Source: Pseudocercospora fijiensis CIRAD86 (lineage: Eukaryota; Ascomycota; Dothideomycetes; Mycosphaerellales; Mycosphaerellaceae). From it: a DNA stretch of 64,000 bases. The position numbers and the translations under genes are program-made. The notes under the pieces were generated by a model. The model was given only the letters and a program-made list of their open reading frames with translations. It had not been told where the DNA came from and did no database searches. The stretch is from positions 1,798,001 through 1,862,000 of the forward strand of contig NW_006921538.1 in NCBI RefSeq assembly GCF_000340215.1. Direction: 5' to 3'. This document shows positions 16,790 through 57,244 of this stretch, piece by piece; position 1 is the first letter of the stretch; the number at the start of each line of letters is the position of its first letter.

Positions 16790-19700
16790 ACTAGTTATTT
16801 CCTTTTTGTCTAGTTTTAGTATTTTTTGATTATCTGCTAATAGTTCTATAGGTTTCCTTTTAGTTCCTAAGTGTTTTCTAAATGTAGGTATCCTTTCTAT
16901 TTAATAAGGTATTTCTAACCTTACTAGTCTAGGATCTTCTCGACTTTAAACTCGTTTTCTTCCTTAGGTTAGAAGTGAAATATTTCTTAGTACGGTGTTT
17001 CGGCGTCTATAGATTCTAGTATAGAGATATAGAACACTAGGTGGATTTTTGCGTCGTCCGGTAGTTTAAGTCGGTAATTAACTAGTCCTTTAGGCTTATT
17101 AATCAAAAATGGCCCGACTTTAACGTAGTCTAGTTTCTTAGTCGATCTCTAGGTTTTTAAATTCTTTGTTAGGAGGTAGACCTTATCCCCCTTTTTTAGC
17201 TAAGGTACTATTTTTCGTTTAGCATTACACGATCCCGTAATCTTTTCTTAAGACTCGGCAATTGCCCTTTACAATTGTTTATATACCTGCTTTAAGTCTT
17301 CTAAAGCGACTATCGCTTTATCCGCGTATAGATGCTATAAATACTATTCCCCGAATAGCTACGGATGTTTCCTAAAATTAGCGAAGAATAGTGTCTCTTT
17401 CGTAGTCTTAGATTGTTAGTTGTTTAGTGCAAGTTATGCTATAGGTAATAGCGATGCCTAATTGTTTTATACGTAATTAACGTAGTGCCGTAAGTATACC
17501 TCTAAGGCCTGATTCTTGATTTCCGTTTAGCCGTCTGTCTATAGATAGTATACCGTTAATAGCTTATACTTAATTCTAAGTATCGCTATAAGCGTCTTCT
17601 AGTAGTTTGACGTAAAGAGCTTATCTCTATCTATAATATAGGTCCTTAGGAATCTGTAGTATCGTATAAGTCTATCTAGTACGAGGTATCCGAGTTACTC
17701 TACCGTACTTGCTTCGTTAGTAGGAATAAAGTATATATATTTCGTAAGCCTATCGACTATAATAAGTATTATATCGTAGCTATGTCCTATAACCGGATCC
17801 TTAGACTTCGGTAGTTTCGTAATAAAGTCTATCGTAACTTCGTCCTATAGTTTGTCTAGTAGCGTCCTAAATTAGATATATCTATACTTAGCGTGTCTAT
17901 TAGCCTTATTACGCTAACATTGTAGATATTTCTTAATATATTCTAGAACTCGTTATCGCATATATAGGAATCCGAAGCTCCGCTTAACTAGTTCTATTGT
18001 TTTCGAAACTCTAGGGTGTCTATTTTCTAGTCTGTCGTAGTATTGTTATATATACTCTGCAACTCGTTCCTTAGGTACTTAGTATTTCCTATATTCGATT
18101 AGGAACTATTCTTCTATATCCTAAAGAACTCGCATAGTATAGTTGAATTCTTTTATATTAGTACTAAGGCTTCCGTCTTAGTTTGCTTTTAATATCTGCT
18201 GCTGTGCTAGTTCGTAACCCTCTGTATAGTCGCTACGGCGGCTTGGTACGTCGGCTCGTCCGTTCTCGCGTCCTAGGGTATAGCGGATTTCGAACTTGTA
18301 CTATCCTAGTAGCTCCGACTAGCGGGCCTATCTTCGGGTTAGTACTTTAGTTGTAGTAAAGTAAGTTAGATTCTTATAATTAGAAAGAATCGTAAGACTT
18401 AGTGCTCCCTTCGCGTATACTCGCTAGCATTATAGTAATACAACTATTGTAAGTAGCTCCTTATTATAGATATTATAGTTCTATTCCGCGGGTAATATCT
18501 TTCTCGAGTAATAGGCTACCGGGTGCCGTTTCCCGTTATGCTCCTATATAAGGTATACTCCTATAGCCCTATCCGACGCGTCTGTTTCTATCTAGACCGC
18601 CTTATTCCTATCGAATAATCGTAGCGTTAGCGCAGAAACGCATTGCTTCTTTAGCTACCTAAACGCTTCGTCTTCCTTTGTACTCTAGTTCTATTTCTTA
18701 TCTTTCTTTATAAGCTCCGTAAGGGGTACCGATATCTTAGAGTAGCCCTCGATGAATTTCCTATTATAGTTAGCTAATCCTAGGAATAATTATACGTCTT
18801 TAACGCATATAGGCGTTAGCTATTCCTATATTAACTTAGTTTTTTCTAGATCGATCCTAATTCCTATAGTGCTAATAATAAATCCTAGGAACTTAACTTC
18901 CTTCTTATAGAATTCGTATTTCTTAGGTATAGTCTTAAATCCTACTTAAGTAAATCGTTTAAAGACGTCCTACACTATCCGTATATAGTCCGCGAGAGCT
19001 CCCTTAGTATAGACTAAGATATCGTCTATATATACGATAACGTATATATCTAGGAGGTCTCGGAGGACTTCGTTTACAAGGTCTTAATATAACGCTAGGG
19101 CATTTGTAAGTCCTATAGGTATAACTAAGAATTCGTAAAGCCCGTATCTTGTTCGGAATGCTATTATCTACTCGTATCTAGCTGCTATACGTATTGCGTA
19201 AAACGCGTCGCGTAGGTTAATCTTCGTATACTAGTCTAATCTAGTTAATCGGTCTTGCATTTCTTCGATATTCGGTAGTAGGTACCGATTCTTAATCGTA
19301 ATGTCGTTAAGTCGTCTAAAATCGACTACTAGCCGTCCTTCGTCTAATCCGGCTTTCGGAACGAATATTACTAGCGAGGCTACCGAGGATATCGACTTCC
19401 GTATCTAGTAGACCCCGCAGTGGTTCGGTTTGCGAACTATAGAACGTATATGGTTTGGTTTCTTAGCGGTACCCCTCCGGTTTGGTTCCGGTTTGGTTTT
19501 TTGCCCCGCTAGTCTGAGCTGGTTTCCGAGAAAATCCGACTAAACTGCGACGATATACGACGACCTCGGATCGAGTCCGGGACGCGACGGGGGCCTATAT
19601 TGTATACGCTACACGATTGCATCTGTGTTTCGGGCTGTTTAGACGTGTTTTGGGATGGGTTTTTGTCCGTAGCCGGCACGTAGCCGGCACCTAGCCGGCA

Positions 19701-20590
19701 AACCGGTCCGTACACCGGTTTCTTGGCAAACCAAACCAAACCAAACTAGAATTTCGGCTTGGCAAACCAAACCAACCCAACCCGAACCACTACGGGGTCT
19801 AGTATCTAGCCTTTTTCTAATTTTTCTTTTAGCTATTTGTCTAGGGTTTTAAGCTCTTTCTTAGACATTACGTATAAGGGTCCCTATAGAGGCTCTTTCC
19901 TAGGCTGTAAGTATATCTTGTAATCCTATAGTTAGTATTTAGGTAAGGCTACCTTGCCTCTCTCCTCTTTAAAGAGTCGCTTCTACTTACTATACTCTTT
20001 AGGAATGTCTAGGTCCGAGATTCTAGTTTTATTCTTCGATAGCGTATAACTTCTGTCCTTCCCGTGATTGTTATTGTGACCCTCCTCGGTAGTGTCGATC
20101 CGGGTTAAATACGGTTCTCCGTAATTCCTATCGACGCAAACGTCTTACGAGTCGCTCTACGCTTATTAATCTCATCTATCTACGAACGCTGCCGCTATAT
20201 AGGTTAAATGCCGATTATATAGTCGTATTCCTTAAATATAAGTACTCCTCTTTTCTAGTCTACGGCTAGGTTATGCTTTCTTAACTAAGGTATACCTAAT
20301 ACAATATTATAACTAGCTATATTAGTAATATCTAAGACAATCTCCTCGTAGTACTATTAGATAGCTAGTAGTAACGGTATCGTCTCTCGTTCTATACTAG
20401 GTAGCGGTAACCTATCTACTGCTATAAGTTTATACGCTCCTTCTCTTCTACTTCGGGTTGCGATCCCTCGGCTTTTAACGAATAATTCGGAGGCAAAGTT
20501 CCCGCTCGCTCCGGAATCTATTAATATACTCGTCGGGTGCCCGTTAACGATAACTTTTGTACGGAAGACTACTATTAATGCTTAAGCGCT
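16790..20590 (-). pseudogene. pol relic of retrotransposon 2 (protease to chromodomain)
   Basis: Read right to left. Protease near 20480-20560 has ILIDSGASGNF with the catalytic DSG intact (20510-20518). RT about 18850-19400 and after the miniature element includes DDILVYTKG-like sequence and KFLGFIIS. RNase H near 18560-18620 reads ETDASDRAIGVYLI. Integrase lies about 17300-17950. The linker and chromodomain lie about 16820-17130 (KVEKILD**G*KYLIK*KGY). A 393-bp hAT-type insertion interrupts RT at 19409-19801, and the large hAT element cuts just upstream of the protease. Stops are RIP-type. Confidence 0.88.
19409..19801. mobile_element. hAT-type miniature element, copy 1 (393 bp)
   Basis: Terminal inverted repeats TAGACCCCGCAGTGGTTCGG (one or two mismatches at the right end) and an 8-bp duplication GTATCTAG at 19401-19408 and 19802-19809, the hAT signature. 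The ends match the 10-kb element at 20599 and the copy at 45928; relative to these it is inverted. It contains GTAGCCGGCA-type motifs at 19673-19703 and GGTTT-rich subterminal runs. No protein is encoded; the reading frames here are shadows. It sits inside the RT of retrotransposon 2 and is much less RIP-mutated than its surroundings. Confidence 0.93.
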
Positions 20591-20598
20591 TTCGGTAT

Positions 20599-20727
20599 TA
20601 GACCCCGTAGTAGTTCGGGTTGGTTTGGTTTAGTTTGCTAAGCCGAAGATCTGGTTTAGTTTAGGTTGGTTTGCTAAGCAACTACAAGAGTAGCTAGTTC
20701 GAACTATAGAATTTATCGGTTTCTAAG
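20599..20727. repeat. Left terminal and subterminal repeat of the large hAT element
   Basis: TIR followed by GGTTTGGTTT-type runs and GCTAAG(C), matching the left end of the copy at 45928 after allowing for RIP. In hAT elements such regions are transposase binding sites. Confidence 0.8.
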
Positions 20728-21133
20728 AAGTGTAAGAATGTCTACGTAACTCGAAGCAAGCCCTTTATAAGATACGAGAGTGTGGCCGGTAGCGTAGCCG
20801 GCGTTTTTTAGTTATAGGAAGGTACTTATATAACCCTAAATCTATAGGCAATTAGCTAAAGGCACTAACTAATCAAAAGTATATACACAGACAAGCTATT
20901 ATAGTTTAGTTTAGAAACTGCACTTATTAGAAGTGTAAGAATGTCTACGTAACTCGAAGCAAGCCCTTTATAAGATACGAGAGTGTAGCCGGCAGCGTAG
21001 CCGGCATTTTTCAGTTGTAGGAAGGTACTTATATAACCCTAAATCTATAGACAATTAGCTAAGGGCACTAACTAATCAAAAGTATATATACATACAAGCT
21101 ATTATAGTTCAGTTTAGAAACTGCACTTATTAG
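20728..21133 (+). repeat. Tandem duplication, 2 x 203 bp, promoter-like
   Basis: Units 20728-20930 and 20931-21133 are almost identical. Each holds one TAGCCGGC motif pair and a CTTATATAACCC box about 100 bp before the unit end. They lie immediately upstream of the plus-strand gene at 21186, so this may be a doubled promoter. That function is inferred from position only. Confidence 0.85.
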
Positions 21134-21185
21134 GTATGAATTTCATCCTTTCGCTCGCTATTCAATTCCCTAACTACTCGGTAGA

Positions 21186-21725
21186 ATGTTATTATCTAGA
21201 TCTAGGCAGAACTTATCGATTTCCCTAGAAGTCCTCCTCTTTAAGAAGTTCTAACACTTTCCTGCCGAACTGTTCGATAACATTAAGTACTAGGATAGCT
21301 CCTCCCTCGGTATCGGTATAGTATATAAAAGAGCTATAAGGCAGCTCTATAGAACGTTCTACTAGTTACTCGCTATACTAAGGCCGAATGCTAGTTCGTT
21401 CCTTAGAACTCTTAGTTATTTAGGAGATATAAAGGGTAGGGTAGGTAGTAACTTCGTATTATATAAGGAGGTAGAGGCTGCTATAGAAGAGGCCTTTAAC
21501 CTATAGAAGATAGTAAAAGATATAGAGGCAGCTATAGGTCTAGGTACCTAGTTGAATTTCTAGTAGGTAGAGTATAAGGATATTTAGAGGGAGTATTAGG
21601 TAGAGTTACGAAGGCAGGTATATAATATGCTCTAGAAAATAGGGATAGTGCCTATAACTATAACTATTAGGCTCTTCAACCTTCCTTATTTTTCCCTGTT
21701 TTCTTTTTATAAAAATCTAAACTAA
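21186..21725 (+). pseudogene. Unknown 180-codon gene in the hAT element
   Basis: One frame from ATG to TAA on the plus strand, opposite to the other genes of the element. It is interrupted only by TAG at likely former CAG/TGG codons. Readable segments include LLFKKF*HFPAELFDNIKY, IGIVYKRAIR*LYRTF and GRVGSNFVLYKEVEAAIEEA. The C-terminal half is charged and helix-prone. I recognise no domain. The start was chosen because it is the first ATG in this frame after the duplicated upstream unit; an earlier start is possible. It may be helper or passenger cargo. Confidence 0.6.
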
Positions 21726-22025
21726 TACAAATCAACCGGAATGTCTATCTTCTTTTAGTTCTTTAAAAAACCTAGCAGCGTAGCTAGCAGCGTAGCCGGC
21801 CTTTTTACTCCTTAGTACTAACGGGAATTTAGGAGACTTCTATTCCGTACGGCTAATAAAGCATACTATACTATATATATATACTTAGAGAGTATTTAGA
21901 GCGCGGTATGCAGCGCCGTATAATAGCGGCTTATTTCGCATATAGAAAAGCTTATAGATAACACTACAAACATCCTTCCTACTAGAATATCTATCCTACC
22001 TAGTACCGTCTCGAATGTAGACATT
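21726..22025. other. Spacer between plus-strand gene and H3-type gene 1
   Basis: Converging 3' ends. It contains a TAGC(C)GGC motif cluster at 21775-21805 and AT-rich sequence with a TATATATATATA run near 21875. Nothing coding was seen. Confidence 0.6.
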
Positions 22026-22111
22026 CTAGCCTTTCAGAATCTAATCGAGTGCTTTGAAATCCTTGTCTATAATCGTTATACGCTTCGCGTAGATAGCTAT
22101 AAGGTTAACCG

Positions 22112-22160
22112 CTAAAATAGTATTAGTATAGTCCGAAAAGAGGTAGAAGAGAAATATATA
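22112..22160 (-). other. Intron 2 of H3-type gene 1
   Basis: About 49 bp between IFE and NLIAI of the H3 fold. Branch-like TACTAATAC and acceptor ATTTTAG are clear. The donor has decayed, so the exact 5' end is uncertain. Confidence 0.7.
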
Positions 22161-22342
22161 TTCGAAGATACGAACTAGGTAGGCTTCTATAGCTTCTTAA
22201 AGGGCGCCTATCGCGGAGGCTTAGAAGCGAAGGTCCGTTCTATAATCCTAGGTAATTTCGCGAACAAGTCGTTAGAAAGGAGCTTTGCGGATTAGGAGCT
22301 TAGAACTCTTCTAATACTACCGAATCTAACGGAGGGCTACGG

Positions 22343-22433
22343 CTAAAGAAGGATTAGTAAAAAGATAGTAAGAATGCCGGCTACGCTACCGGCTACGCTA
22401 CCGGCTACGCTGCCGGCTATAAATAGGACTTAC
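22343..22433 (-). other. Intron 1 of H3-type gene 1, with TAGCCGGC motifs
   Basis: 91 bp with donor GTAAGT, branch-like ACTAAT and acceptor CTTTAG. Splicing restores the conserved R-x-x-G-T-V-A-L-R junction in phase. The centre holds four GTAGCCGG(C/T) motifs. Confidence 0.85.
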
Positions 22434-22698
22434 TGCCTAGGCGCTATCGACGCTTCGTACGATTGCTACTAGTAGTAGAAGCGCTAGTTGTCGTCTTACG
22501 TAGAGCCTTGCCCGCCGTTGTCTTACGCGGAGCCTTACTCGCGACGCCCTTTCTAGTACCGGAGCTAGCGGTAGTAGTAGCAGCCCTCTTGCGTTAATGT
22601 ACTATACTCGTTCTACTATTTCCGGTCTTATTACGACCCGTAGAAGTACTAGGTCCCTTCTTGCGAGGCGTCGTAACTTAGTTAAGTAGACTCGCTAT

Positions 22699-23239
22699 TA
22701 TAAAAGTCGTCGAATTGAGGAAAAAAGTGCGTTACGAAGGTATACGAAGGCGCGCGCGGAGCGAGGGTATTATAGAGGTAGTAGATATAGAGCGTAGAGG
22801 TATAGGTATCGATACGAAGGTTAAATATAGCGGTAGTATCGCGGTGTCGCTAGGTAATAGAGTAAGCTTCGCGTAAGCCTATATTATAGTAACGTTAGAG
22901 CAAGGAAAGAAGGCAGGTACGGCTAAAAAAGGTAGGTACGGCTAAAAAAGGCAGGTACGGCAGACTTTGAAATATAGCCGGCATATATAGCCGGCATAGT
23001 AATAGGCGAAAGCCTCCTTTTAATAAATAGCCGGCGTAATAATAGTATCCTACTATAGTATAGATATTCTTTAGTAATGCCTTTACTAGCTATAGTAATC
23101 TTATAAGTAACCTAGGCCTATTGCTAGTAAATATAAGAAATATTAGGTAGGCTATACTTAATAAGCTAGTTATTTAGTAGGAAAAGGCCTACTACCGTCT
23201 CTATATACCGGCTACGAGTGCCGGCTATCGCTCTAAATT
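22699..23239. other. Spacer upstream of H3-type gene 1
   Basis: Probable promoter side of H3-type gene 1. Contains a GGCAGGTACGGCTAAAAAA repeat (about three copies, 22913-22970), then TAGCCGGCATA repeats at 22975-23030 and another motif near 23207-23226. No coding frame recognised. Confidence 0.55.
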
Positions 23240-23961
23240 CAACTCCGCCCTATCTCGGAGGCTAAGGTACCGAGCGGAAACCTTATAGCTTATATTCACT
23301 CGGTTATCGCGGAGCGCTTATAGGTAAGGTATTAGAAAAGAGTATAAAAAGTACGAGAAGAGTATCCTAGGATATAGGTCGTAAGTAAATAAGAGTAGTA
23401 CGCCTAGTTATTTATATAGTACGTTACTCTATACGACTAAGAGCCTATATTATCTTATGCTTCGCTTATAAGACCTCGACTCTACTAGTATACTATCGAT
23501 CTCCTCCTCGGTCGCTAATACGCTATCTTAATTCTTCTTCGAGTTGCCGGACTTAGTACGTATCTATAGCTATATAATAGCGCTACGTATTATAGAGAAT
23601 CAACTCCGCCGTATCTCGAAGGCTAAGGTACCGAGCGGAAATCCTATAGCTTATATTTACTCGGTTATCGCGGAGCGATTATAGGTAAGGTATTAGAAAA
23701 GAGTATAAAAAGTACGAGAAGAGCATCCTAGGATATAGGTCGTAAGTAAATAAGAGTAGTACGCCTAGTTATTTATATAGTACGTTACTCTATACGACTA
23801 AGAGCCTATATTATCTTATGCTTCGCTTATAAGACCTCGACTCTACTAGTATACTATCGATCTCCTCCTCGGTCGCTAATACGCTATCTTAATTCTTCTT
23901 CGAGTTACCGGACTTAGTACGCATCTATAGCTATATAATAGCGCTACGTATTATAGAGAAT
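23240..23961. repeat. Tandem duplication, 2 x 361 bp
   Basis: Units 23240-23600 and 23601-23961 differ at only a handful of positions, nearly all transitions. The minus strand of each reads as a charged protein fragment (VR*LEEELR*RISDRGGDR) with RIP-type stops, so it may be a duplicated gene piece. No domain is recognised. It lies between the two H3-type genes. Confidence 0.85.
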
Positions 23962-24351
23962 TTCTCGTTAAAGTTTCTCTCTCGTAGGCTTACTATCTAC
24001 CTCGTAGTATAGAGGATTAAAGTGCTAATACTAAAGAATCTCCTTATAGTTAGGATACTAGGGCTCCTTAGGACCTTTGTATTTTAGGTCTAAATAGAGA
24101 CGTATTATAAACGTTCTATCGCCCTTTCGCTTACTACTCGCTAGGTCGCGATATACGAAGAAACTAATCTAAATATAGCTCGTCTCTGTAATAGCCGGGT
24201 AAATATAGAGCGCTAGGTTTCTACTTCGTACCTTAGATTTAGGGACGGCGCGGAGATAAAATTAGAAATGTAGCCGGTACCTATAGCCGGCAAAAGGATG
24301 CGAAAATAGGCCTCCTCCTAGGTTAATCTAACGACTAAATACAATTTCTAA
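23962..24351. other. Region downstream of H3-type gene 2
   Basis: Continues from the 361-bp repeat without an identified domain. It may hold the rest of the unknown minus-strand gene represented in that repeat. A TAGCCGG motif pair lies at about 24272-24291, just past the stop of H3-type gene 2. Confidence 0.45.
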
Positions 24352-24993
24352 CTAATCCGCTATAAACCGACGCCGAATTTTAGCTAGAAGCTATATATCT
24401 TTATTTTAAAGAGTAACCCGCTTCGTATAGATAGTAAGGAGGTTTAAAAGCTTAAGCTCGGTTACGAGAAATGCCTCCGTAGCTTTCTAAAGAGCACTAA
24501 TCGCCTTAGCCGTAAATCGTATACTAGACCGAAAATCTAATATAATTTCTCGGACGAGTCGCTAGAAGGGAGTCTTAGGGATTAAAAGCTCGGTCCCTCT
24601 TTTATTTTAGAAAAGCCGGATCTAGCGAAGGGTAATAGTACCTAGTTTAAAGCGCCGCTTCTTTATCGTCGAGTCCTACCTTATTCCCTTTCTTTTAATA
24701 GAAAGATAACTTTTCTTCGCGATAGTCTTCGTCCGCCTACTCTTTTTAGCCTTCTCCTATCTACCTATAGCCTTCTTGTTTTTCGGTACTATTTTCCGAA
24801 GAACCCCCTTCCTTCGTATATACTACGGAGAGCCTTACTCTTCCGATATCTCGTTCTCGCTACGGTCTCCCTATACTTAGCTTGCTTTACCCTTGCCCTT
24901 TAGCCTCTAAAGATATTTATCTACGCGTTTAGGCGATAAGGGTATATCGGTAGGACCTAGAAAATTAATAAGTATATAATCGTAAGGAGACAT
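24352..24993 (-). pseudogene. Divergent histone H3-type gene 2 with long N-terminal tail
   Basis: One continuous minus-strand frame of 214 codons from ATG to TAG, no intron seen. Residues 1-130 form a basic tail: it starts MSPYDYILIN, includes LSPKRVDKYL, and later KKSRRTKTIAKKSYLSIKRK. The H3 fold follows: GTITLR*IRLF*NKRGTELL, IPKTPF*RLVREIILDF, SAL*KATEAFLVTEL, then IYTKRVTL*NKDI*LLAKIR. The three-residue longer alpha-N/alpha-1 junction and the long tail recall centromeric H3 (CENP-A) variants, but loop 1 is not extended, so the class is uncertain. Stops are RIP-type. Confidence 0.85.
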
Positions 24994-25343
24994 TAATGCT
25001 TCTTACCTTCTAGAACAAACAGTCTTCTATTAAACTACCTTAGTAGGTTATCGTTAGATTCGAATAAAGGATAGTAGCTTAAGGAAGGGGAGGTAGCCGG
25101 CTTAGGAAGGCCCGAAGAGCCGAATCCTTAAGGTATATTTATCTTTAAGAATATAGGGAAAGGGAAGAAGGAGAGGAAGAGCGAATAGAGAATTAGAAAT
25201 AGTCCGTAGGTAAGCGGGGTCGGTTGCTATAGCAACTAGTCTATTTAGGTCCTAAGAATTCGAAATATATTTCAGATATATACCGGCTATATACGCCGGC
25301 TATATTACCTTATATATAAACGCTTCGTCTCCTTAAAGCTGCT
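24994..25343. other. Spacer between H3-type gene 2 and transposase
   Basis: Upstream side of H3-type gene 2 and 3' side of the transposase. Motifs at 25087-25094 (TAGCCGGC) and 25283-25304. Otherwise A/G-rich, with nothing coding recognised. Confidence 0.55.
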
Positions 25344-26652
25344 CTAAGCCTATATACGTTTCCGCTTCTCGACCCGGTATCGCCTTCTACCTCCGCCCTT
25401 CTCCTCTTCGTTATCGCTAATTAGGGTTTCGCTTAGACTAAATTTCGTATTCTCTTCGCGCTCCTAGATTTCTTCGATCTTAAGGTTTTCTAATTCCTCG
25501 ATTAACTCCTTTAGCATAATCTTTAGTAACCTGCCTTAGCGATTCTAGTAGAGGAGATAGTATCGGAATACTATAATAGATTCGAAGGTAGTAGGCGAGT
25601 ATATTCGATTAAAGCGGCCCTAGTAACGAGCGATACTAAAAGACCTCTTATAGCCTATACCTACGCTTAGGATAGCGAGGACGTCCCGAGCGACCGACGC
25701 TATCGTTAGAAACTTAGGCTCTAACCGCTGCTATATAGCGAGAATATCGTCTCCGAATTCGTCTAAAAGACCGGTAAGATCTAGAGATTATTAGCCCTCT
25801 TTCCGAGCCTACGGGTTTATACTTACTCGCGCGCCGATAGAGATCGAACTCTTCTTTATTTACTTTAGTAGTTACTTCCTCTTCTGCCTCTACTTCCTAC
25901 CTACGAAATAGGTATAATATCGGAGCCTTCTAAACCTTCTTTTTCTTTATAGGAGCTGCATTTAGACTAGTTTCTTTCCGACGCTCGTAGAATATCTTTT
26001 CTAGAATAGTCTAGTAATGCTTCGGCTATACCTCGTCCGCCTTCTATTCCGGCCTCTACTAGTATATATCCTTTTCTACCGGGTTAAGCAAGTACGCAAC
26101 GCTATAGATATCCCCGAACGAGTTAAAGGTAGTACTGTAATATTTATATAACTTAGTATAGGAGGTATCTATAGCTTTCGTTATAGCTACTTTCTAGGGA
26201 ACGCTCTTCTTAGCTAGCTTAGCTACGGTTTCCTCGAGCTCGTTAAAGAGCTAGTTATAGTACGTAAAGATAAGGTAGATCGTCGGTCCTCGGGTTCTTC
26301 TAATCGTAGTAGTAACCTTTGCGTAATGCTTACTAATATCGACGAGATACTCTACTTAGCGCTATTCGGCGGCGGTAAGGCCGAGCTACTTAATACCCTC
26401 GGAACTCTAATAGATCTCGAGAGCGGTACGTAAAGTATATCCCTTCGTAACTATATAGAAAGTCGAATCGAACTAGGTCTTAACGTCTTAGGTAAAACGG
26501 AGTAGGCGCTAAGGAGGCCGCTTTTGCTATCGCTTATTCTATACGATATTCTAGGTATCGGTTTTCGGGCGCTCGATTAGGTTCTTTTAAATAGCCTCGA
26601 ATCGGCTATATCTCTATAAGCTCGAGTTCGTATATATTGCTAGACGACGAAG

Positions 26653-26728
26653 CTAGAGAAAAAGAGTTAGAACTATACTAGGTTACCGGCTATAGGTACC
26701 GGCTATAGACAAAAGTTATACCTTATAC
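26653..26728 (-). other. Putative transposase intron with TAGCCGG motifs
   Basis: About 76 bp, donor GTATAAGG and acceptor TTTTTCTCTAG. It holds two TATAGCCGGTA motifs. The donor choice is tentative; a second GTATAAC lies a few bases inside. Confidence 0.6.
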
Positions 26729-27676
26729 AAAACGAGAGCGAGGCTCTCTGCCTTATCCCGTCTTATTACTATAATAAGTTTCTCGACTTTCGACTTTGCT
26801 TTATCCTTATCTAGGATCTTCTATTAGTCGTCGTTTAATAGTGCAATTTTAAGCGTCTTAAAGAGGGCTCGGATCGCGATTTAAACTATATAAGCGAAGC
26901 AGGGAAACTTCTATAGGGATATAACTAGCAACGACGTCGGCTCCGATTTAATAGGGCTAGGGCTATTAATAGGCTCCTCTTTATCGTTATTATCGTGCGT
27001 ATTGTCGTACGTATCCGGAATCGTAGCGAGCTTAATATTCGGAAGATTAAGCTAGATTGTAGACCTTGTAATCTCCTCTACGTACTCGACCCTATCGATA
27101 TAATTAATGATTTTAAAGATATATACGAGTAAATTGTATATAAAACGCCTTATACAATGTTCGATTATTACTAGCGTTGTCCGTAGTAATCGAGATTAGT
27201 TTCGTTGTTACGCTAACCCTATCTATTACCGTATAGATAAGCTTCGCTATATCTTTACTAGTATAGGAACCTAGAATTTTAGGGAATCCGATTATAAGTT
27301 CCTAGAGTTTCTAATCCGAATTGATAAAGTATAGTATAATCGAGAGGAAGGAGGCTCTTATAGTCTAGCTTAACTAGCTATCGATAGCAATAGCTACTCG
27401 GCGAGTATTACGGAGGATCTCCCGAATGTCGTCTAACGCAGCCTCTTTATTCTTTTCGAATATAATACGCTAGGTTGTCGCGCCGAGAAATAGGGGAGGG
27501 TAGTTTGCAAGATATAGGCACATCTTCTATATAGACTCCCTTTCGTAGAAGTCTTCCGGAAGACCGTTTATAGCTAGCATTTCGTTTACTAGTTGCTTAA
27601 AGTCTTCGGAGGAGAAATCGGTAGCCTTTAATCCTAGAGCTTCCTTAAGCGTAGCCTATAATAATTAGCTAGACCT

Positions 27677-27794
27677 CTACGGTTGATTTAGGTAGCCGGA
27701 ATCTATAGCCGGAATCTATAGCCGGTAGCTATAGCCGGCAGCTATAGCCGGCAGCTGTAGCCGGCAGCTATAGCCGGTATTTTAGAAGACGTAC
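27677..27794 (-). other. Putative transposase intron filled by a CCGGCTATAGCTG array
   Basis: About 118 bp. Donor GTACGT and acceptor CCGTAG bracket six or seven tandem 13-bp motif units. Which acceptor AG is used decides the frame and is unresolved. Confidence 0.65.
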
Positions 27795-28460
27795 CTCTTT
27801 CTAGAACGCTATATCTATATTAACTCTCCTCTTTCCTTAAGATTCCCGATACCGTTTAGAATAGAGATAGTTCGTAGGCGATAAGTTCCTATCCCCTAGT
27901 TTCGGGTATTTTAAGATTAAACCGTAGAAGTTACAGACAATTACTAGTTAACCTTTAAGTCGAGAAGTCGTATAACGGTACAATGCCCCCTCTATAAAGA
28001 ACTTCTAGAATGTATCCGTTCGCTCCTTACTCCCCTATCGCATCGAGTACTTCCGGAGTTTATACTCCTTTAAACGTAAGTATAAAGGGAACTATATCTT
28101 ATAGACCTATTAATTGAACTGCTCTATACACTCGGGTTTCTAAAGATACGCCTAGCTAGCCTTTTCGAAGATTTCCGGGTTAATACTCGATATTCTTATA
28201 TCTCCGAATAACCTTCTACTTAGACTCTATAAAGGTAAGGACTAGATAGCAGTACCCTATAATAAATTCCTACTACTAGGATTCGGAGAGGATGAATCTA
28301 GCCCTAATCGTCGTCTAGGACTCGATAGGCTCGAAGGTAAGTATACGACCTCCTCTCGACGTTATCGCAATCTCGCTCGTATACTAGACTGTTTCGACTA
28401 TCGTCTCGTTATTACCCTTCCTAGTATAGCGCCTAGTATATACACAATGTCGGTCGGCAT

Positions 28461-28725
28461 GTTTTAAGGTTTCGTACGGTAAGGTAAGGACTTAGGAGTA
28501 GTAGATATATACTAGTAGCTATAGGGAAACACCCTTTCTTTTATAGTATCGTATCGTTAGGAACAGCTAGGTAGTAAATAGCTAGCTACCTTTTTTTTTG
28601 TTTCCTAGCTACCTAACTACTAGATTTTTTTTTCCTAGCTACCCTAGCTAGCCTAACTACTAGAATTTCTTTCCTAGCTACCCTAACTACCTGAATTTTG
28701 CCTTCTATACGGCGGCTCTCTCCTA
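28461..28725. repeat. Spacer with imperfect repeats after the lysine-rich gene
   Basis: Between about 28575 and 28700 three or four copies of a roughly 35-bp T-rich unit (CTAGCTACC(C)TAACTA...TTTTT) are visible. The rest is unassigned and may include the true start of the transposase. Confidence 0.6.
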
Positions 28726-29124
28726 CTAACGGAACCGAGCTACTATACCTAACGAATCTAAGCTCGTTTTTAGTCTTAATCTATCCTCTTTCGGTATAAG
28801 ATACTCGACAAGCAAATGCTTAGGCCGAGTCTAACTACGAAACCTAAGACTAACTAATAGCTCTATTAACTAATCCTAATCCTCGAACTCCTTCCGCTTC
28901 TTAGTAAAGACCTTAAAGAGCGCTCGAGCTTCTTCGGGTGCCTGCGGAGTAGTCGAGATAAAGCCGTATCGCTAAAATAGGTAATCCTTCGGAGGCTTAT
29001 ATAGAGATTTAGAGAATTCTAACGCTAACCTATCCTACTAGTAGCTTAGATTCCGGATACAAGCCCTCTCTACCTTAGTAAAGATTTTATATAGTAGTAG
29101 CACTCTACCTTCGAGAAACGCTTT

Positions 29125-29172
29125 CTATTTAACTATTAGTATCTGCCGGCTACGAACGCCGGCTATATATAC
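29125..29172 (-). other. Intron of the lysine-rich gene (second)
   Basis: About 48 bp: donor GTATAT, two TAGCCGGC motifs, branch-like ATACTAAT, acceptor AAATAG. Confidence 0.65.
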
Positions 29173-29671
29173 CGAGCATAGAATAATTACCTATACCCCT
29201 TCCTCCTATAGTAACACTTCTGCCGTCCCTAGATACCTAGCCCCGATCGTATTAATCGCAAGCTACTTTGCCTTTATAGACGCAAAGGCTTCGCTCTAAT
29301 ACTAATAAAGAACCTTCTACTCTATATCGAGGATATAAAGACGACTAGTCTCGATTCTAATCCTTGCTAGCTTTTCGTAGTAGCTTTAACTATAATTTTC
29401 TAGATTAATAGGACTTATGCCTTAGCCCTTTACTAGTATCTCGTCTCTTTAACTATACTCGATCTACTCCTAGCGCTTATCGTCTATAGCGTTAGGCCCT
29501 AAGACTATACCTATTACTAGATCGACGTATAGTATCTCCTCGCTTTTTTTAGTTCCTTTATTCGTAGTATTAAGCTCTATCGCGGTATCCTAAACTCTAG
29601 CATTATTGTTCTCGGCTATCTAAACATCTCCGTTACTATCGGTCGTATCGATAGAGGTAGCGGCTACAGGT

Positions 29672-29778
29672 CTAAATGCTATTAGTTAACGTATTAAAGA
29701 AAAATATACCGGCTATAGCTGCCGGCTACGGCTGCCGGCTACAGCTACTAGCTACGGCCGCTAGCTAGATTAACTTAC
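29672..29778 (-). other. Intron of the lysine-rich gene (first)
   Basis: About 107 bp: donor GTAAGT, three GTAGCCGGCAG-type motifs, branch-like GTTAACTAAT, acceptor CATTTAG. Confidence 0.75.
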
Positions 29779-30229
29779 GCTGCTAGAACTTTACGCTCGA
29801 AAACTAGCCGCAATTCTTTCCTCCTCTTAGCCTTTTCTTAGGTTGTCTTCTTATTCTAACCTTTACTTTTTTCTATAGGCGCTAGCTATCGATAGAATGC
29901 CTTATTCCGCGCCTTTCTTCGCTTATCCTTAGCTCTTTTATCCTTATCTATCTTCTCCTTTCTCTTACGGTCTCGTACGGAATTCTTCTTCGTAGAGTAC
30001 TCCTCTTTAGTCTTACGCTTTTTAGTTAGACACTTAGGCAAAACAAACTCGCGGTCTTTAGTTCTATCTTCTATTTAGCGCGCGGCGCGCTTCTCTTTTG
30101 CTATTATAAGGGAAAGGGGCGGGGGCGTAGCGTATAGTAGTTATTGTCGGTATAGGTATAGAGGAAGAAGTTGAAAGTATAAGAATATCGCGAAGCCCTA
30201 ATTGTTGCCGCCTACGTAACATTATATAG

Positions 30230-30540
30230 GTAAGCTTTCGTAACTACGGCAACTACGCCCCGGTAATAGTAACTACGCCCTAGCAACGGTAACTACGCCC
30301 TAGCAACGGCAACTACGCCCTAGCAACGGTAATAAAGCGTAGTAAATACAACCTAGTAACTATTATAGCCGGCAATCGTAGCCGGTAGTCGAATAAGAGT
30401 GTCCTTATAGCAAAACTACGCCCTAGTAACGGCAACTACGCCCTAGCAACGGCAAAAGAGCGTAGTAAATGTAACAAAGTTACTATTATAGCCGGCAATC
30501 GTAGCCGGCAGTCGAATAAGAGTGTCCTTATAGTAAAACT
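30230..30540. repeat. Subterminal tandem repeats near the right end of the hAT element
   Basis: A 20-bp unit AACTACGCCCTAGCAACGGC is repeated about four times at 30247-30330 and twice more near 30412-30450. Each block is followed by a near-identical segment holding TATAGCCGGCAATCGTAGCCGG. This mirrors the duplicated motif-bearing unit at the left end (20728). Confidence 0.8.
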
Positions 30541-30682
30541 AATATAGTCTCTAGTTTAAACTAGGAATCTATATAGTTCGAAAAAACCAAACCGGAACTA
30601 GGGAGCTAGTTCGCCGCTAAGAAACCAAACTATATACGTTTAGTAGTTTGGAAACCGAACTACTACGGGGTCTATTCGGTAT

Positions 30683-32600
30683 TAAGGAACTCTCTTAGAA
30701 CGCTCTAATCTAGAGAGTTAGTCCGTTTCCCGACTAATTAGTAGCCTAACGTTGTTCTAACTAGCTACGGATCCGTAGTCCTACCGTTCGTGCTTCTTCG
30801 GTATATAATTTTTCTTCGAGGATATCGTTATATATATCCCGTCCTTGCGCTACTATAGCCTTTCGGTATTGCTAATTTAATCGCTAGACCGTCTAACGTA
30901 TCTCTTAAGTAATAATCGTCCTCTCGTCGGATAGGACGTATCCGTAGGGCGTAATTATACTTCCTATCGGTACTCGCTCCGTAATAAAGTTATAGTACGT
31001 ATAGTCTATAGGTATTCGGGGGTAATTCTAGAATTTTACCCGTAAGCTTATCTAGAAATAATTAAATTAGATAGGATCGACCTTCCGTTGCCCGTTAACC
31101 TTTAGAAACATTTCCTCGTATTTACGTACTAGATATAAGGCGATTGTTCGCGCTACTATAGGTATATCTATTATAAACGTAAGGATCGTATCGTCGTTAA
31201 TCCCGAATTCGTCTTTACTTTCTTTATTTGTAGTTTCTTCCTCGGTATCTAGACTTCCTTCTAAATCTTCTTACTGTTCCTCCTTTTACTAAGGGGACTC
31301 CGGTACTTCTAGGATAGCTCCTAACTCCTCCCCGGGAGGGAATAAAGCTTCCGGATCTCGGTTTTCTTTATCGTCGGTATCTAAGCAAGATTTATTAATC
31401 GTTTCTTCTTCTAACTAGGATTTCGTATCTTCTCGTATAAGTCGCCTAATCTAAGGGAAGAATCCTGCTTCTATTTTAGTAGAATAATGAATTTAGTATT
31501 AGTCGTCGTAATAGAATCTCTAGTAAAGGGTTCTATATATAGGTTCTTATCGTCGTGCTATTATATAGATTTGTCGTAGCTCTTTCCTTACGACCTTTAT
31601 ATAGGTCCTCGGCGCGTTATTAATAGAGTATAGCTCTACTATTATTCGGTAGCCTTCTCTATCCGAGTCCTTTCGTTATATTATATTAAACTGTTTGCGT
31701 TGCACTATATTCTTGCCGCGGCAGTTCCGTGCTATATAGCCTTCCTTGCTATAGGTATAGCAAGTTAATCTTCCTACTTTCTTAGGCGAACTCTTGCCCT
31801 TTCTTCCTTTAAATGCTTGACCCTTCTAGGTAGCGTCTAGCTCTATTAGTTGCGCGCTATAGTAGTTGTTCCCCTTTGGTTTATCGTAGGTACTATAGTT
31901 TCGCCTACTATTATATCTAGGAGTATAACTAGCTTTTCTAGAAGTCTTAGAATCGTAGCGTCGTTCTAAAGCTCGTTCGTAGAGCCTGTCGTCGAGATCG
32001 ATCGTAACCTTAACTAATGTTCCTATATTATCTATTTTTCTACTATCGCGTATAAGCTCGTCCTTAACGTTGTCCTTAAAACCTCGCCGATATATTATTA
32101 TAAGAGCTTCGTCGTCCTAATCCGTAAGTTAGGCGTATTCCTAGAATTTAGCGGCGTAATCGGTATATAACCCCTTCTAAGTTAAGTATTAGATAACCCT
32201 AACTACGGTAGCAACCTCGTTAGAAGATCCGAAGACCTTCTTTATCGTACGCTTAAGATGTTCGTAGCTTGCGAAGATTCTATTCGAGTAGTCGGTCCCG
32301 TTGCTATCTAGATAGGTTCTAAGAAATAGTTTAACCTAATACTAAGCCCTGCCTCGTATAAACGTCGTTACGAAGACTAGCTTTAAGTTGTTTTAAACCT
32401 AGTTAAATATAAAATACATATCTATCTAGCTAACCTAGGTATCGAACTTGTCTCGGTCGCTGTAATAAAAGTCTAGCTTTCCGATCTTAAGGGAATCGTT
32501 TCCGGTATAGGTTCCTAGTATACTGCTAATACTAGAGGTAGTACGTCGAGTACTGCCTATCTCGCTAGGGGCGGGAGTTCCTCTTCCGACTTGTAATAAG
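30683..32600 (-). pseudogene. gag relic of retrotransposon 2
   Basis: Minus-strand gag between the 5' LTR and the 10-kb hAT insertion. A zinc knuckle at 31721-31762 has C-x2-C-x4-H-x4-C spacing. The first and last Cys remain, and the second Cys and the His read Tyr (C Y T Y ... E G Y I A R N C). Downstream the frame runs into the hAT target TTCGGTAT (30675-30682) and resumes at 20598. Surrounding sequence is Asp/Glu- and Ser-rich. Confidence 0.8.
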
Positions 32601-32625
32601 GCACTTATCCTAAGGGCGTTTAAAG

Positions 32626-32971
32626 TGTTACGGTTACTCGCGACAGATCGTTAGGTAACTTCTTATTACGTGCAAGCCGAGGCTTCTTTAGAGAGGCTAA
32701 TATAAGCGGGAGGTAGAGACAGAATAATTAGTATAAAGGTAATTCCAATTAGTAAGTAGGTAACATAAGTTAAGCGCCTCGAGCTATAAGGGTATTCCGG
32801 CGTTCCTAAATACAAAGGAGACATCTTGTCTATAGTCGTAAGCGACGTAAGCGACGCTGTCGCTCTCGACCGCTCCTATCGCTCCTAGTAAGATAGAGCG
32901 ACAGCTTAGCCTACTAGTCTTAGCGTCGCTCTAAGATTATATAAGGACTCTAACTAATTAGATCCGTAATA
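32626..32971 (-). repeat. 5' LTR of retrotransposon 2
   Basis: 346 bp direct repeat of 15596-15941, starting TGTTACGGTTAC in plus orientation. The target duplicate GCTAG follows at 32972-32976. No standard tRNA-complementary primer site was recognised next to it. Confidence 0.95.
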
Positions 32972-32976
32972 GCTAG

Positions 32977-34028
32977 ATTAGATCCTTCGCGACTGTCGTA
33001 GCTTTGCGCGAGCTTATATCGACGATATCGTAGTATTTTCGTAGACGTTACCCGAGTATCTCGATTATCTAGAAGCGGTCTTCTAGAGATTAGACGCCGT
33101 AAGGATTAGTATTAGTCCGAAGAAGACTTTCTTAGGCTTCCCCTCCGCGACCCTTTTAGGTTAGTACGTTAGCGGCCTCGGTTTAGCTACGAGTAAGAAG
33201 AAAATCGTAGCGATTACCTCGCTTTAGTTCCTAGAAAACGTATAGAAACTAGAGTATTATCTCGGTCTAACTAATTAGTTGCGGCAATATATCCTATACT
33301 ATATATAGATAGCGGCGCCTCTATAGGCGGAGAAGATACGCTTACTAAAAGGGGCGCTAGTTACCGGCAATAGTCGTCGCTAGTACGTCGCCGTTACGAC
33401 GCTAGGTAAGAACGATTAGTACCGCGACGAGCTAGTAAAAGCGTTTCGCTTATTATAATCGATATTCTACGAGCCCTCCTTCCTATACTATTTTAACCCT
33501 AACTATCGCTTATACGCTAATATAGATTCCTTAAAAGAATTTAGCTATAGCGCGGTACTCTACTATATCGATAGGGATCTAGACCCGATTCTATCTAAGG
33601 GAAAGGCGCAGTTGTTTCCTTACTATAAGGTTTAGCCTATTCTGTTCTTAAGCCGAGGCCTAACTTAGGCAAAGATACGATATTAGCTAATAGAGCTCGA
33701 ATACTCGGGAATCGTATAGATAGTAAAGAAGGTAGGCTATTTAATATATACTTTATCGAGGCTAACGACTATCTTTATAGACTACTATACCGCGGTCGGT
33801 CTTACTAACTCGGTATCGATAACTACGACTACCGATATAGGTAAGCAGAACCTAAAATTAGTAAGGGTATCGATATTCCTTTCCTAATATCGAGTTAATA
33901 TAGTTTACCGTCTAGGGCAGATATACCTAGTTCTAGACGCCCTTAGTCGACTTCTAGGGGATATAGAGTCGCCTAAGTTAACGCCGGACGAGGAGAACTT
34001 AGACCCGCTCTCCTACTATACCGACGTT
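32977..34028 (+). pseudogene. C-terminal RT and RNase H of retrotransposon 1
   Basis: Continues the RT from 15595. The catalytic motif YIDDIVVFS is intact at 33015-33041, so both catalytic Asp survive RIP here. Next come SPKKTFLGF and a thumb/connection region (LEYYLGLTN*LRQYI), then an RNase H region to 34028. LTR element 3 then interrupts it, with target ACGTT at 34024-34028 and 50005-50009. Elsewhere the frame carries many TAG stops. Confidence 0.9.
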
Positions 34029-38400: not shown

Positions 38401-39420
38401 TCTCGTTAATAAGCGGAAGTAGATAGCGGTCTTTAATAGTAATAGCATTAAGTCTACGGTAATTAATATATAGGCGTAGGCTACTATCCTTCTTTAGTAC
38501 GAATAGGATAGGTACACTAGCAGGACTGTTACTATACCGAATTCGACTATTAGCTAGGTTCTTATCTAGGTACTTACGCAGTATAGCAAGCTCCCGTTTA
38601 CTAAGGTTATAGAGGGGCCTAAAAGGAACCTCCTTGCCCTATATAATATCGATCTTATAGTCCGTCTCTTTAAATATAGGCAATGTCGATGCTAGGTAGT
38701 ATTTAAATATATCGATATAGGTCTCTCGAATAGGCTCTAGTATGCGAGCAAGCTAATTAGGGTCTATACTATTAGGGGGCATAGGTTTATCGTTATTACT
38801 ACCGAGCAGGTCGGTAGTCGGATTAGCTAAGGCGGAGGCTAGTATTAGGTTGCTAATAAATAGGACCCTAATGTTGTTAGGGCACTCGCTAATATTAATA
38901 TGTTTAATGTCCTCTCTCCTAGCGATCCTAAATCGCTACTATTAACTGCCTAAGTCTATAACTATAGTATAGTGCTTAAGAATAGGGTTGCTAATAACAA
39001 TATCGGATAGGAGGTTGTCTATGTCTACTATATAGGTAGTAAAGTCTAACAAACGCTTATTGCCGAGGTCGTCCTTTAGAACTATAGGAATATAGTAGGC
39101 TCTATAGGTCAAGTGCCGAGCGTTATTAAACTAAGCAAGGGTTGGCATGTCGGTTCTAGGCAATTGTCGGAGGTCTAATTGCTTAGCTAGGCGGTAATTA
39201 ATAAGGGCGCTAACCGAATTTCCTAGATCTAGTATAACCTTAGTTTAATAGGTAGTTCTATACGTATCCTATATAAGACAGGTGCGTGTAATAGCTAGCA
39301 CAATATCGATAGTTTTACGCTATATAAGGCTAACAGTTAGTGCGGCGCTTACTCTTTTTTCGAAGGTTGGCCTATAGGGGTAGCGTTAGCTACTAAAAGG
39401 TGTTTCCTATATTTAGCGGA
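35440..39420 (-). pseudogene. Family A copy 2: pol relic with chromodomain
   Basis: Most complete copy of family A, read right to left. Protease-like LDLGNSVSALI lies near 39195-39230. RT about 38200-38720 includes LYINYRRLNAITIKDRYLLP. RNase H lies about 37500-38000. The integrase core about 36300-36620 includes TIDFIIGLPPTKRRGSKD, AILVVVDRFTKSARYIPARK and GIVSDRGSTF, so two catalytic Asp are visible. The chromodomain about 35520-35690 includes ERIL*YRTRKGKKEYLLR*. The Lys-rich tail (KNKKKAKG) near 35470 ends the protein. RIP-type stops throughout. Confidence 0.9.
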
Positions 39421-44945: not shown

Positions 44946-47900
44946 AAGGCTAAGCGTATCGGATATAGCTTACTATAAGTGTTCTAAATAGTACTTATTA
45001 TAGGTATTTTAGATAGTACTACTTACTATAAGCGTTCTTAATAGTACTTACTGTTAGCGTTCCGAGTTAGACTTACTATACGCGTTCCGGATAAGACTTA
45101 GTATAAGCGTTTAGATTAGAATTACTATATAGCGCGTTTTAAATAAAACTTAGTATAAGCGTTATAGATAGTAGTACTAACTATTAGCGCTCCGGATTAG
45201 ACTTACTATATACGTTCCGAATAGTACTTAGTATTATAAGCGTTCTAAATTAGACTTATTCTTAGTATTATAGATATTCTATAGAGTACTCGCTATAGGC
45301 GTCCTATAGGATACTCGTAGTAGGCGTTATATAGGGTACTCGCTATAGGTAGTTCGAATACTATTTACTATAGGCGTTTTAGATAGTATTTACTATAAGC
45401 GTTCCGGATAGTACTACTCGCTATAAGCCTTCCGGATAGTACTTAATATAGGTATTTAGTTTCGGATAAGACTTGCTATATACGTTCCGGTTTATATAGG
45501 ACTAACTATACTAAGCGTTTAAAATAAGGCTTATCCTACGCGTTCCGGGTAGTACTGCTCGCTATAGGTATTCTATAGAGTACTCGCTATAGGCGTTTTA
45601 TAAGGTACTCGTAGTAGGCGTTATATAGGGTACTCGCTATAAGTAGTTCGAATATAGGCGTTTTAGATAGTGTTTACTATAAGCGTTCCGGATAGTACTA
45701 TTTGCTATAGATACCTCGGATAGTTACCGCTATAAGCGTTTCAAATATTGCTACTCGCTATAAGCGTTTTTAGTAGTATTTACTATAAGCGTTTCGGATA
45801 TAACTTGCTATAAGTATTCTAAATAGTGCTTACTATTAGTATTTTAGATAGTACTACTTGCTATAAGCGTTCTTAATAGTACTTACTATTAGCGTTCCGA
45901 GTTAGACTTACTATACGCGTTCCGGATTAGACCCCGCAGTGGTTCGGGTTGGGTTGGTTTGGTTTGCCAAGCCGAAATTCTGGTTTGGTTTGGTTTGGTT
46001 TGCCAAGAAACCGGTGCACGGACCGGTTTGCCGGCCACGTGCCGGCCACGGACAAAAACCCATCCCAAAACACGTCCAAACAGCCCGAAACACGGATGCA
46101 ATCGTGTAGCGTGTACAATATAGGGCCCCCGTCGCGTACCGGACTCGTTCCGAGGTCGTCGCATGTCGTCGCAGTTTCCTCGGAAACCAGCTCAGACCAG
46201 CGGGGCAAAAAACCAAACCGGAACCAAACCGGAGGGGTACCGCTAAGAAACCAAACCATATACGTTTGGTGGTTCGCAAACCGAACCACTGCGGGGTCTA
46301 TTCCGGATAAGACTTAGTATAAGCGTTTAGATTAGAATTACTATATAGCGCGTTTTAAATAAAACTTAGTATAAGCGTTATAGATAGTAGTACTAACTAT
46401 TAGCGCTCCGGATTAGACTTACTATGTACGTTCCGAATAGTACTTAGTATTATAAGCGTTCTAAATTAGACTTATTCTTAGTATTATAGATATTCTATAG
46501 AGTACTCGCTATAGGCGTCCTATAGGATACTCGTAGTAGGCGTTATATAGGGTACTCGCTATAGGTAGTTCGAATACTATTTACTATAGGCGTTTTAGAT
46601 AGTATTTACTATAAGCGTTCCGGATAGTACTACTCGCTATAAGCCTTCCGGATAGTACTTAATATAGGTATTTAGTTTCGGATAAGACTTGCTATATACG
46701 TTCCGGTTTATATAGGACTAACTATACTAAGCGTTTCAAATAAGGCTTATCCTACGCGTTCCGGGTAGTACTGCTCGCTACAGGTATTCTATAGAGTACT
46801 CGCTATAGGCGTTTTATAAGGTACTCGTAGTAGGCGTTATATAGGGTACTCGCTACAAGTAGTTCGAATATAGGCGTTTTAGATAGTGTTTACTATAAGC
46901 GTTCCGGATAGTACTATTTGCTATAGATACCTCGGATAGTTACCGCTATAAGCGTTTCAAATATTGCTACTCGCTATAAGCGTTTTTAGTAGTATTTACT
47001 ATAAGCGTTTCGGATATAACTTGCTGTAAGTATTCTAAATAGTGCTTACTATTAGTATTTTAGATAGTACTACTTGCTATAAGCGTTCTTAATAGTACTT
47101 ACTATTAGCGTTCCGAGTTAGACTTACTATACGCGTTCCGGATAAGACTTAGTACATACTTGCTATAAGCGTTCTTAATAGTACTTACTATTAGCGTTCC
47201 GAATTAGACTTACTATACGCGTTTCGGATAAGACTTAGTATAAGCGTTTCGGATTAGAATTACTATATAGCGCGTTCTAAATAAAAATTAGTATAGGCTA
47301 TAAATAGTAGTACGCTATAGGCGTTTTATAGGGTCCTATACGTTCCGGATAGTACTACTCGCTATAGATATTCTATAGAGTGCTTACTATAGGCGTTTTA
47401 TAAGATACTCGTAGTAGAGGTTATATAGGTTACTCGCTATAGGTAGTTCGAATATAGGCGTTTTCGATAGTATTTACTATAAGCGTTCCGGATAGTACTA
47501 CTCGCTATAGATATTCTATAGGGTACTCGCTATAGGCGTTTAATAGGGTACTCGTAGGAGGCGTTATATAAGGTACTTGCTATAAATAGTGCGAATACTA
47601 TTTAACTATAGGCGTTTTAGATAGTATTTACTATAAGCGTTCCGGATAGTACTACTCGCTATAAGCCTTCCGGATAGTGCTTAATAAAAGCATTTAGTTT
47701 CGGATTAGACTTAGACTTACTTTATATATTCCGGATAAGAGTTTCTATAAGCGTTTTAGATTAGAATTACTATATAGCGCGTTCTAAATAAAACTTAGTA
47801 TAGGCGTTGTAGACAGCAGTACGCTATAGATATTCTATAGAGTACTCGCTATAGGCGTTTTATAGGGTAATCGCTATAAACAGTTCGAATACTATTTACT

Positions 47901-57239: not shown

Positions 57240-57244
57240 ATACA

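What the first reader, a model, noticed from the sequence alone, without database searches (positions are those of the whole stretch)
20599..30674. 10-kb hAT transposon carrying two histone H3-type genes and other cargo
The ends (20-bp TIR, 8-bp TSD TTCGGTAT), a hAT transposase core and hATC domain, and two independent H3-fold genes all lie inside one bounded element. hAT transposons normally carry only a transposase. I know of no described hAT family with H3 cargo, so this may be a new class of giant fungal DNA transposon that could influence host chromatin or centromeres.
Basis: partly seen in the sequence, partly recalled or inferred. Interest (0 to 1): 0.92.

Follow-up and report, generated by a model that had tools for sequence, protein, structure and literature searches.

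The report
Known histone-carrying fungal jumping gene

Summary
20599-30674 is one bounded element: 23-bp inverted ends (96% complementary), an 8-bp target-site duplication, a mutation-riddled hAT-like transposase and two Pfam-confirmed histone H3 genes, saturated with RIP mutations. It is not new. The genome (73.9 Mb, intact H3 on contig 6, 772 histone candidates) matches Pseudocercospora fijiensis, in which Dhillon et al. 2019 described this family (784 H3-like copies, 20-bp TIRs, 8-bp TSDs, 9.5-9.9 kb, all RIP-inactivated). Manning et al. 2013 reported an H3-carrying hAT in Pyrenophora.

Additions: (1) The two H3 genes look like different genes. H3-A is intronless, long-tailed and has a 2-residue insertion; H3-B has two intron-like gaps. 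The second, 48 nt, is the likely source of the published "16-aa insertion", so the published retrocopy reading does not fit H3-B. (2) Three subfamilies keep H3-A in frame (12 of 14 copies), but my codon-position test for selection was not significant. (3) The hAT dimerisation match that the paper could not find is present only weakly. (4) Short derivatives of 373-393 bp share the ends; one in this window is un-RIPed inside RIPed DNA. Whether H3-A is a dedicated transposon histone remains open.

The parts
20591..20598 (.). left copy of the 8-bp target-site duplication TTCGGTAT
20599..20621 (+). left terminal inverted repeat (23 nt, 96% complementary to the right one)
   Evidence: genome count
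22434..22698 (-). H3-B exon 1: basic N-terminal tail (start codon position inferred)
   Evidence: translations; boundary from the splice-like site
22343..22433 (-). H3-B intron 1 (inferred): starts GTAAGT in 14 of 14 copies, ends TTTAG in 13 and CTTAG in 1; length 69-116 nt, all three remainders mod 3
22160..22342 (-). H3-B exon 2: histone fold, PF00125 61 bits
22112..22159 (-). H3-B intron 2 (inferred), 48 nt in 14 of 14 copies, ends TTTTAG in 14 of 14; first two bases GT in only 2 of 14 (AT in 12)
22026..22111 (-). H3-B exon 3: end of the histone fold
24352..24993 (-). H3-A: intronless frame of 214 codons with long tail and H3 fold, PF00125 71.3 bits
25490..25832 (-). transposase, hAT C-terminal dimerisation region (sub-threshold PF05699)
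25872..26670 (-). transposase, later part of the core (by eye; no Pfam match)
   Evidence: no match
26724..27072 (-). transposase, middle part (by eye)
27114..27655 (-). transposase core with a stretch reading like ...TDNASNN... (hAT motif recalled, by eye)
   Evidence: no hAT family
28690..29772 (-). cargo frame X of unknown function, two stretches with a repeat-bearing gap between them
   Evidence: no Pfam match; second stretch (X2) present in 8 of 8 TIR-selected copies
21201..21650 (+). cargo frame Y of unknown function; not aligned in the subfamily III copies
30652..30674 (-). right terminal inverted repeat
30675..30682 (.). right copy of the target-site duplication TTCGGTAT
19409..19801 (.). 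393-bp short derivative with the same TIRs (1-2 mismatches), TSD GTATCTAG on both sides
45928..46300 (.). 373-bp short derivative, un-RIPed, TSD TTCCGGAT on both sides

Best explanation
A RIP-inactivated copy of the published H3-bearing hAT family of Pseudocercospora fijiensis. Shown: bounded ends, TSDs, two H3 genes, hundreds of TIR ends, heavy CpA-to-TpA loss. Inferred: a master element of about 10 kb moved by cut-and-paste, its transposase cutting at the 20-23 bp TIRs and leaving 8-bp TSDs. The H3 genes were part of that master before the three subfamilies split, since members of all three carry both. RIP then filled the copies with stops. Short derivatives sharing only the ends lie under the length at which RIP acts (about 400 bp, from PMC6710886), and at least one stayed un-RIPed. 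The H3 cargo has no working role now in the copies scored; in the master, H3-A at least was probably a translated histone.
For: Ends and TSDs; 887 TIR ends against 0 in the control; both H3 genes; both in 8 of 8 TIR-selected copies. Match to the paper: 20-bp TIR, 8-bp TSD, 9.5-9.9 kb, original H3 on scaffold 6, 784 H3-like sequences, against contig 6 and 772 candidates here. A 2026 paper repeats the finding (passages).
Against: The window copy is 10,076 bp, longer than the published 9.5-9.9 kb. The hAT assignment rests on TSD length, sub-threshold PF05699 and reading by eye: the protein search gave 1 hit, not a transposase; no solved structure; hhalign against a hAT ORF of this genome gave probability 1.0, E 0.052; and 0 of the 40 listed family places are among the 47 PF05699 matches.
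Confidence: 0.92

Rival explanations
1. Published reading: one H3 transcript was captured as an intronless retrocopy and then duplicated, the second copy with a 16-aa insertion.
For: H3-A has no intron. The paper reports recovering exon-exon junctions without introns. FastTree groups H3-A with H3-B (0.726).
Against: H3-B has a gap with GTAAGT in 14 of 14 copies and TTTAG/CTTAG, whose length varies in all three remainders mod 3, one codon from intron 2 of the host H3 and in the same phase; its second gap is 48 nt = 16 codons with TTTTAG. H3-A and H3-B share only 47 of 86 fold residues. IQ-TREE does not group them, with weak support.
Confidence: 0.2
2. H3-A is a dedicated transposon histone: a separate, old fungal H3 lineage kept by selection in hAT elements because it helps the element (for example by changing chromatin on its copies).
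For: Frame kept in 12 of 14 copies; lengths 642, 633 and 618 nt in the three subfamilies differ by multiples of 3. Fixed transversions I-III: fold 11/302, tail 22/311; spacer 22/411 with only 27% alignable. Intact unnamed relative P0013 shares the 2-residue loop insertion (placed differently by the aligner) and C-terminal features; 72% support for H3-A + P0013, 76% with P0223 of Clarireedia.
Against: Fixed transversions by codon position 12/8/14 (p 0.44), fold 4/1/6: no significant third-position excess. Spacer between the H3 genes differs little in rate from H3-A as a whole. The context of P0013 (1,189-bp contig) and P0223 is unknown. No expression data.
Confidence: 0.3
3. The H3 genes are passengers without benefit, carried along because the element tolerates cargo.
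For: The non-significant codon test; H3-B evolves fast (77-79% DNA identity to subfamilies II and III in the window comparison); other cargo frames X and Y are present too.
Against: Both genes persist in all three subfamilies, and H3-A stays in frame.
Confidence: 0.5
4. The H3 genes belong to a separate element nested in the hAT.
For: None found.
Against: No inner TIR-TSD pair around them in the window (one search finds TIRs only at the element ends and the two short derivatives); the same arrangement in 8 of 8 copies.
Confidence: 0.02

Closest known systems
H3-bearing hAT family of Pseudocercospora fijiensis (Dhillon et al. 2019, PMC6710886; text parts 1-3 of 7 and Discussion part 1 seen)
   Same: 20-bp TIR, 8-bp TSD, one or two H3-like sequences, CpA-to-TpA RIP, intact H3 on contig/scaffold 6, hundreds of copies.
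   Different: I read H3-B as intron-bearing and distinct from H3-A; see a weak PF05699 match where the paper found none; and describe three subfamilies and short derivatives, neither of which appears in the parts of the paper I read.
H3L-carrying hAT of Pyrenophora tritici-repentis (Manning et al. 2013, PMC3538342; passages and section 20 part 1 seen)
   Same: hAT with an H3-like gene between its TIRs and a further ORF of unknown function; its H3L has tail insertions and matches neither H3 nor CenH3 fully.
   Different: 5.6 and 2.3 kb, one H3L, hardly RIPed; Dhillon et al. found no similarity of element consensus sequences. Protein-level relation not tested here.

Membership tests
hAT superfamily | 8-bp target-site duplication | tested here: met
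   7 of 9 TIR pairs with flanks exact; L034 too
hAT superfamily | short terminal inverted repeats | tested here: met
   23 nt, 96%
hAT superfamily | hAT transposase with C-terminal dimerisation region (PF05699) | tested here: inconclusive
   13.4 and 16.3 bits against cut-off 21.4; 3 of 3 rows of A2 at E<=1, best 0.048; 0 of 40 listed copies among the 47 genome matches
hAT superfamily | BED zinc finger | tested here: inconclusive
   no match; RIP turns Cys and His codons into Tyr codons, so absence says little
P. fijiensis H3-hAT family (Dhillon 2019) | 20-bp TIR, 8-bp TSD, 9.5-9.9 kb | tested here: met
   TIR and TSD as stated; 7 of 8 TIR-selected copies are about 9.57-9.93 kb and one 9,998 bp; the window copy is 10,076 bp. 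The TIR letters of the paper were not seen
P. fijiensis H3-hAT family (Dhillon 2019) | one or two H3-like sequences, RIP-inactivated, original H3 on scaffold 6 | tested here: met
P. fijiensis H3-hAT family (Dhillon 2019) | DUF659 domain in the transposase | tested here: not met
   no match; the paper's detection may have used many copies or de-RIPed sequence, which I did not make
P. tritici-repentis H3L-hAT | homologous transposase and central ORF | not tested
   the Ptr sequences were not at hand; the transposase search returned no transposase

The most novel reading that the evidence does not exclude
H3-A belongs to a separate lineage of non-canonical fungal H3 histones that hAT elements carry as a gene of their own and keep by selection, with intact relatives alive in other fungi (P0013, P0223, perhaps Pyrenophora H3L), so that transposon-encoded nucleosome components are a recurring strategy and not an accident of capture.
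Probability: 0.25. Interest if true: 0.8.

Novelty: already known. Interest (0 to 1): 0.35.

Why it matters
As a discovery it has been made. What may still matter: the published mechanism (capture of one spliced transcript) does not fit one of the two genes; the two H3 genes probably have separate histories; and H3-A with its relatives would make testable whether some DNA transposons encode their own histone. The un-RIPed short derivative inside RIPed DNA suggests movement after the surroundings were mutated.

Tried and rejected
Six-frame Pfam scans with stops as X gave only the two histone hits. The transposase protein search gave one irrelevant hit, a Wolffia protein at 35% over 13%; solved structures none; comparison with another hAT ORF of the genome weak. 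A pattern for short derivatives was not accepted. Rfam: 0 matches in the window. The TIR pairs of L016 (5.2 kb) and L017 (3.5 kb) are a short derivative beside a truncated element, not H3-free full-length copies. L034, a TIR pair with exact TSDs, shows no H3, but its middle is largely N, so it says nothing. The codon-position test for selection on H3-A was not significant. In one search my bounds for H3-B exon 2, intron 2 and exon 3 were about 7 nt off, so I do not use those rows. The script stopped with an error after the L034 results; its L033 part did not run. Two trees disagree on H3-B. Nested insertion of the H3 genes was considered and rejected.
Full report
What is there. The interval 20599-30674 is a single bounded element. 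Its 23-nt ends are 96% complementary, and TTCGGTAT stands directly outside both. The 20-nt TIR, with up to 2 mismatches, occurs 444 times forward and 443 times reverse in the 73.9-Mb genome; the pattern read backwards occurs 0 and 0 times. Of the 8 other TIR pairs whose flanks I held, 6 have exact 8-bp TSDs, each different; with the window copy that is 7 of 9. L010 and L013 lack matching TSDs. L034 has an exact pair.

Both H3 genes are real. With stops read as X, PF00125 scores 71.3 bits at about 24373-24744 and 61 bits at about 22161-22340, both on the (-) strand, cut-off 26.4. Elsewhere in the element Pfam found nothing at E<=1 in the six-frame scans. The DNA is heavily RIPed: CpA and TpG at 0.21 of expectation, TpA at 1.66, and no ORF of 80 aa or more overlaps 18000-33000.

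It is a family. A histone search of the genome gave 772 candidates, of which 150 were scored; 148 of 150 contain stop codons. The two without stops are C6:1692026, the host H3, and C5:606604, which reads as a CENP-A and groups with a protein named cse-4 at 99. Among the listed part (100 places) of the 887 TIR ends I chose the 8 pairs about 9.5-10 kb apart, without regard to H3; 8 of 8 carry both H3 genes, the dimerisation exon and part of frame X. Of 12 further pairs with un-RIPed-type TIRs, 10 contain a place listed, one (L033) holds a shortened H3-A match and an H3-B match, and one (L034) is interrupted by N.

It is in print. Dhillon et al. 2019 (PMC6710886; I read text parts 1-3 of 7 and part 1 of the Discussion) describe in P. 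fijiensis 784 H3-like sequences in 471 hAT elements, full length 9.5-9.9 kb, 20-bp TIRs, 8-bp TSDs, all RIP-inactivated, the original H3 on scaffold 6. Size, contig of the intact H3, copy numbers and anatomy agree, so I take the window to be P. fijiensis; that is an inference, and the contig number (30) differs from the published 56 scaffolds. Manning et al. 2013 (PMC3538342; passages and section 20 part 1) describe an H3L-bearing hAT in Pyrenophora. A 2026 paper (PMC13041039, passages) repeats the Dhillon finding. A 2012 TE survey of this species (PMC3562529, passages) lists 9 degenerate Hobo-Activator copies and no complete one.

What I can add about the two H3 genes. H3-A (24352-24993) is one frame of 214 codons without an intron. 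In 14 copies from three subfamilies its frame runs through, apart from stops, in 12; L009 has a frameshift and L024 is disrupted by an inserted short derivative with its own TSD. Lengths of 642, 633 and 618 nt differ by multiples of three. Its fold matches the host H3 at 48 of 95 residues, the host CENP-A-like protein at 45 of 95 and the unnamed intact protein P0013 at 55 of 95. H3-B has a separate basic tail exon, then a gap that starts GTAAGT in 14 of 14 copies and ends TTTAG in 13 (CTTAG in one), of 69-116 nt with all three remainders modulo 3, then the fold. The gap lies one codon downstream of intron 2 of the host H3, in the same phase. A second gap of 48 nt in 14 of 14 copies ends TTTTAG; it begins GT in only 2 of 14 and AT in 12, a change RIP would make. 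Forty-eight nt are 16 codons, which fits the 16-aa insertion the paper reports for the second copy. So I read H3-B as intron-bearing, which the retrocopy hypothesis does not allow. No RNA evidence was available.

Trees: IQ-TREE supports the three H3-A sequences together (99), H3-A with P0013 (72), and these with P0223 of Clarireedia jacksonii (76); it places H3-B near the host H3 with 33 only. FastTree groups H3-A with H3-B at 0.726. RIP changes disturb both. P0013 (164 aa, 1,189-bp contig) scored 133 bits in the H3-A profile search where most ordinary H3 proteins scored near 114-118; higher-scoring entries include repeated-fold proteins (P0011 and P0012 seen; P0001-P0010 not examined).

Selection. 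Fixed purine-pyrimidine differences between subfamilies I and III were 12, 8 and 14 at codon positions 1, 2 and 3 (p 0.44), and 4, 1 and 6 in the fold (L009 and L024 left out). By region they were 11/302 in the fold, 22/311 in the tail, 22/411 in the spacer between the H3 genes, of which only 27% could be aligned, and 2.9-5.0% in the transposase pieces (group I being the window and three copies, group III three copies). This leans towards constraint on the fold but proves nothing.

Transposase. By eye the (-) strand from 27655 to 25490 reads like a hAT transposase in four pieces (motifs recalled). PF05699 is below cut-off: 13.4 bits here, 16.3 bits in L010, and 3 of 3 rows of a joined alignment at E<=1. 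Against: one search found no transposase relative, no structure, only a weak alignment, and none of the 40 listed places is among the 47 genome-wide PF05699 matches. DUF659, which the paper reports, did not appear in my scans.

Short derivatives. The window holds two sequences with the same ends: 19409-19801 (393 bp, TSD GTATCTAG) and 45928-46300 (373 bp, TSD TTCCGGAT). The second matches the element over about 84 and 97 bp at its ends only. It is not RIPed (GC 0.56, RIP ratio 0.75), while its flanks have ratios of 0.08 and 0.14. A DNA search gave 591 candidates, of which 40 were scored, all 40 covering nearly the whole 373 bp. RIP in the paper's account needs about 400 bp, so these could escape it; L018 and L019, however, do look RIPed, so escape is not complete.

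Verdict. The structure is confirmed and the novelty claim refuted. Open and interesting is whether H3-A is a histone that belongs to the transposon; I give this about one chance in four.

Noticed in passing
window 45928-46300 and 19409-19801: Two short derivatives with the TIRs of the 10-kb element; the first is un-RIPed inside strongly RIPed DNA.
   Followed up: yes
window about 41400-49580: Long stretches of degenerate 25-bp tandem repeats (units near CTTACTATAAGCGTTCCGAATAG), into which the un-RIPed short derivative is inserted.
   Followed up: no
window 38312-38638, 57104-57448, 62484-62870, 61041-61367 (-): Fragments of reverse transcriptase (PF00078, below cut-off) and integrase zinc-binding domain (PF17921, below cut-off): retrotransposon remains.
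   Followed up: partly
window 52255-52825: A 72-bp tandem repeat that leaves frames of 190 and 176 codons open on opposite strands; only a weak, sub-threshold Pfam match.
   Followed up: no
window 23239-23961, 20726-21133, 30291-30541: Tandem duplications of 361, 203 and 123 bp inside this element copy; the first makes this copy longer than the usual form.
   Followed up: partly
element gaps, e.g. 27693-27777, 22377-22420, 29144-29167: A 12-13 bp unit containing TAGCCGGC/GCCGGCTA recurs in both orientations in introns and spacers throughout the element; its role is unknown.
   Followed up: no
L024:4295-4666: A short derivative with TSD GGTAGCAC on both sides inserted in the H3-A region of a subfamily III copy.
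   Followed up: partly
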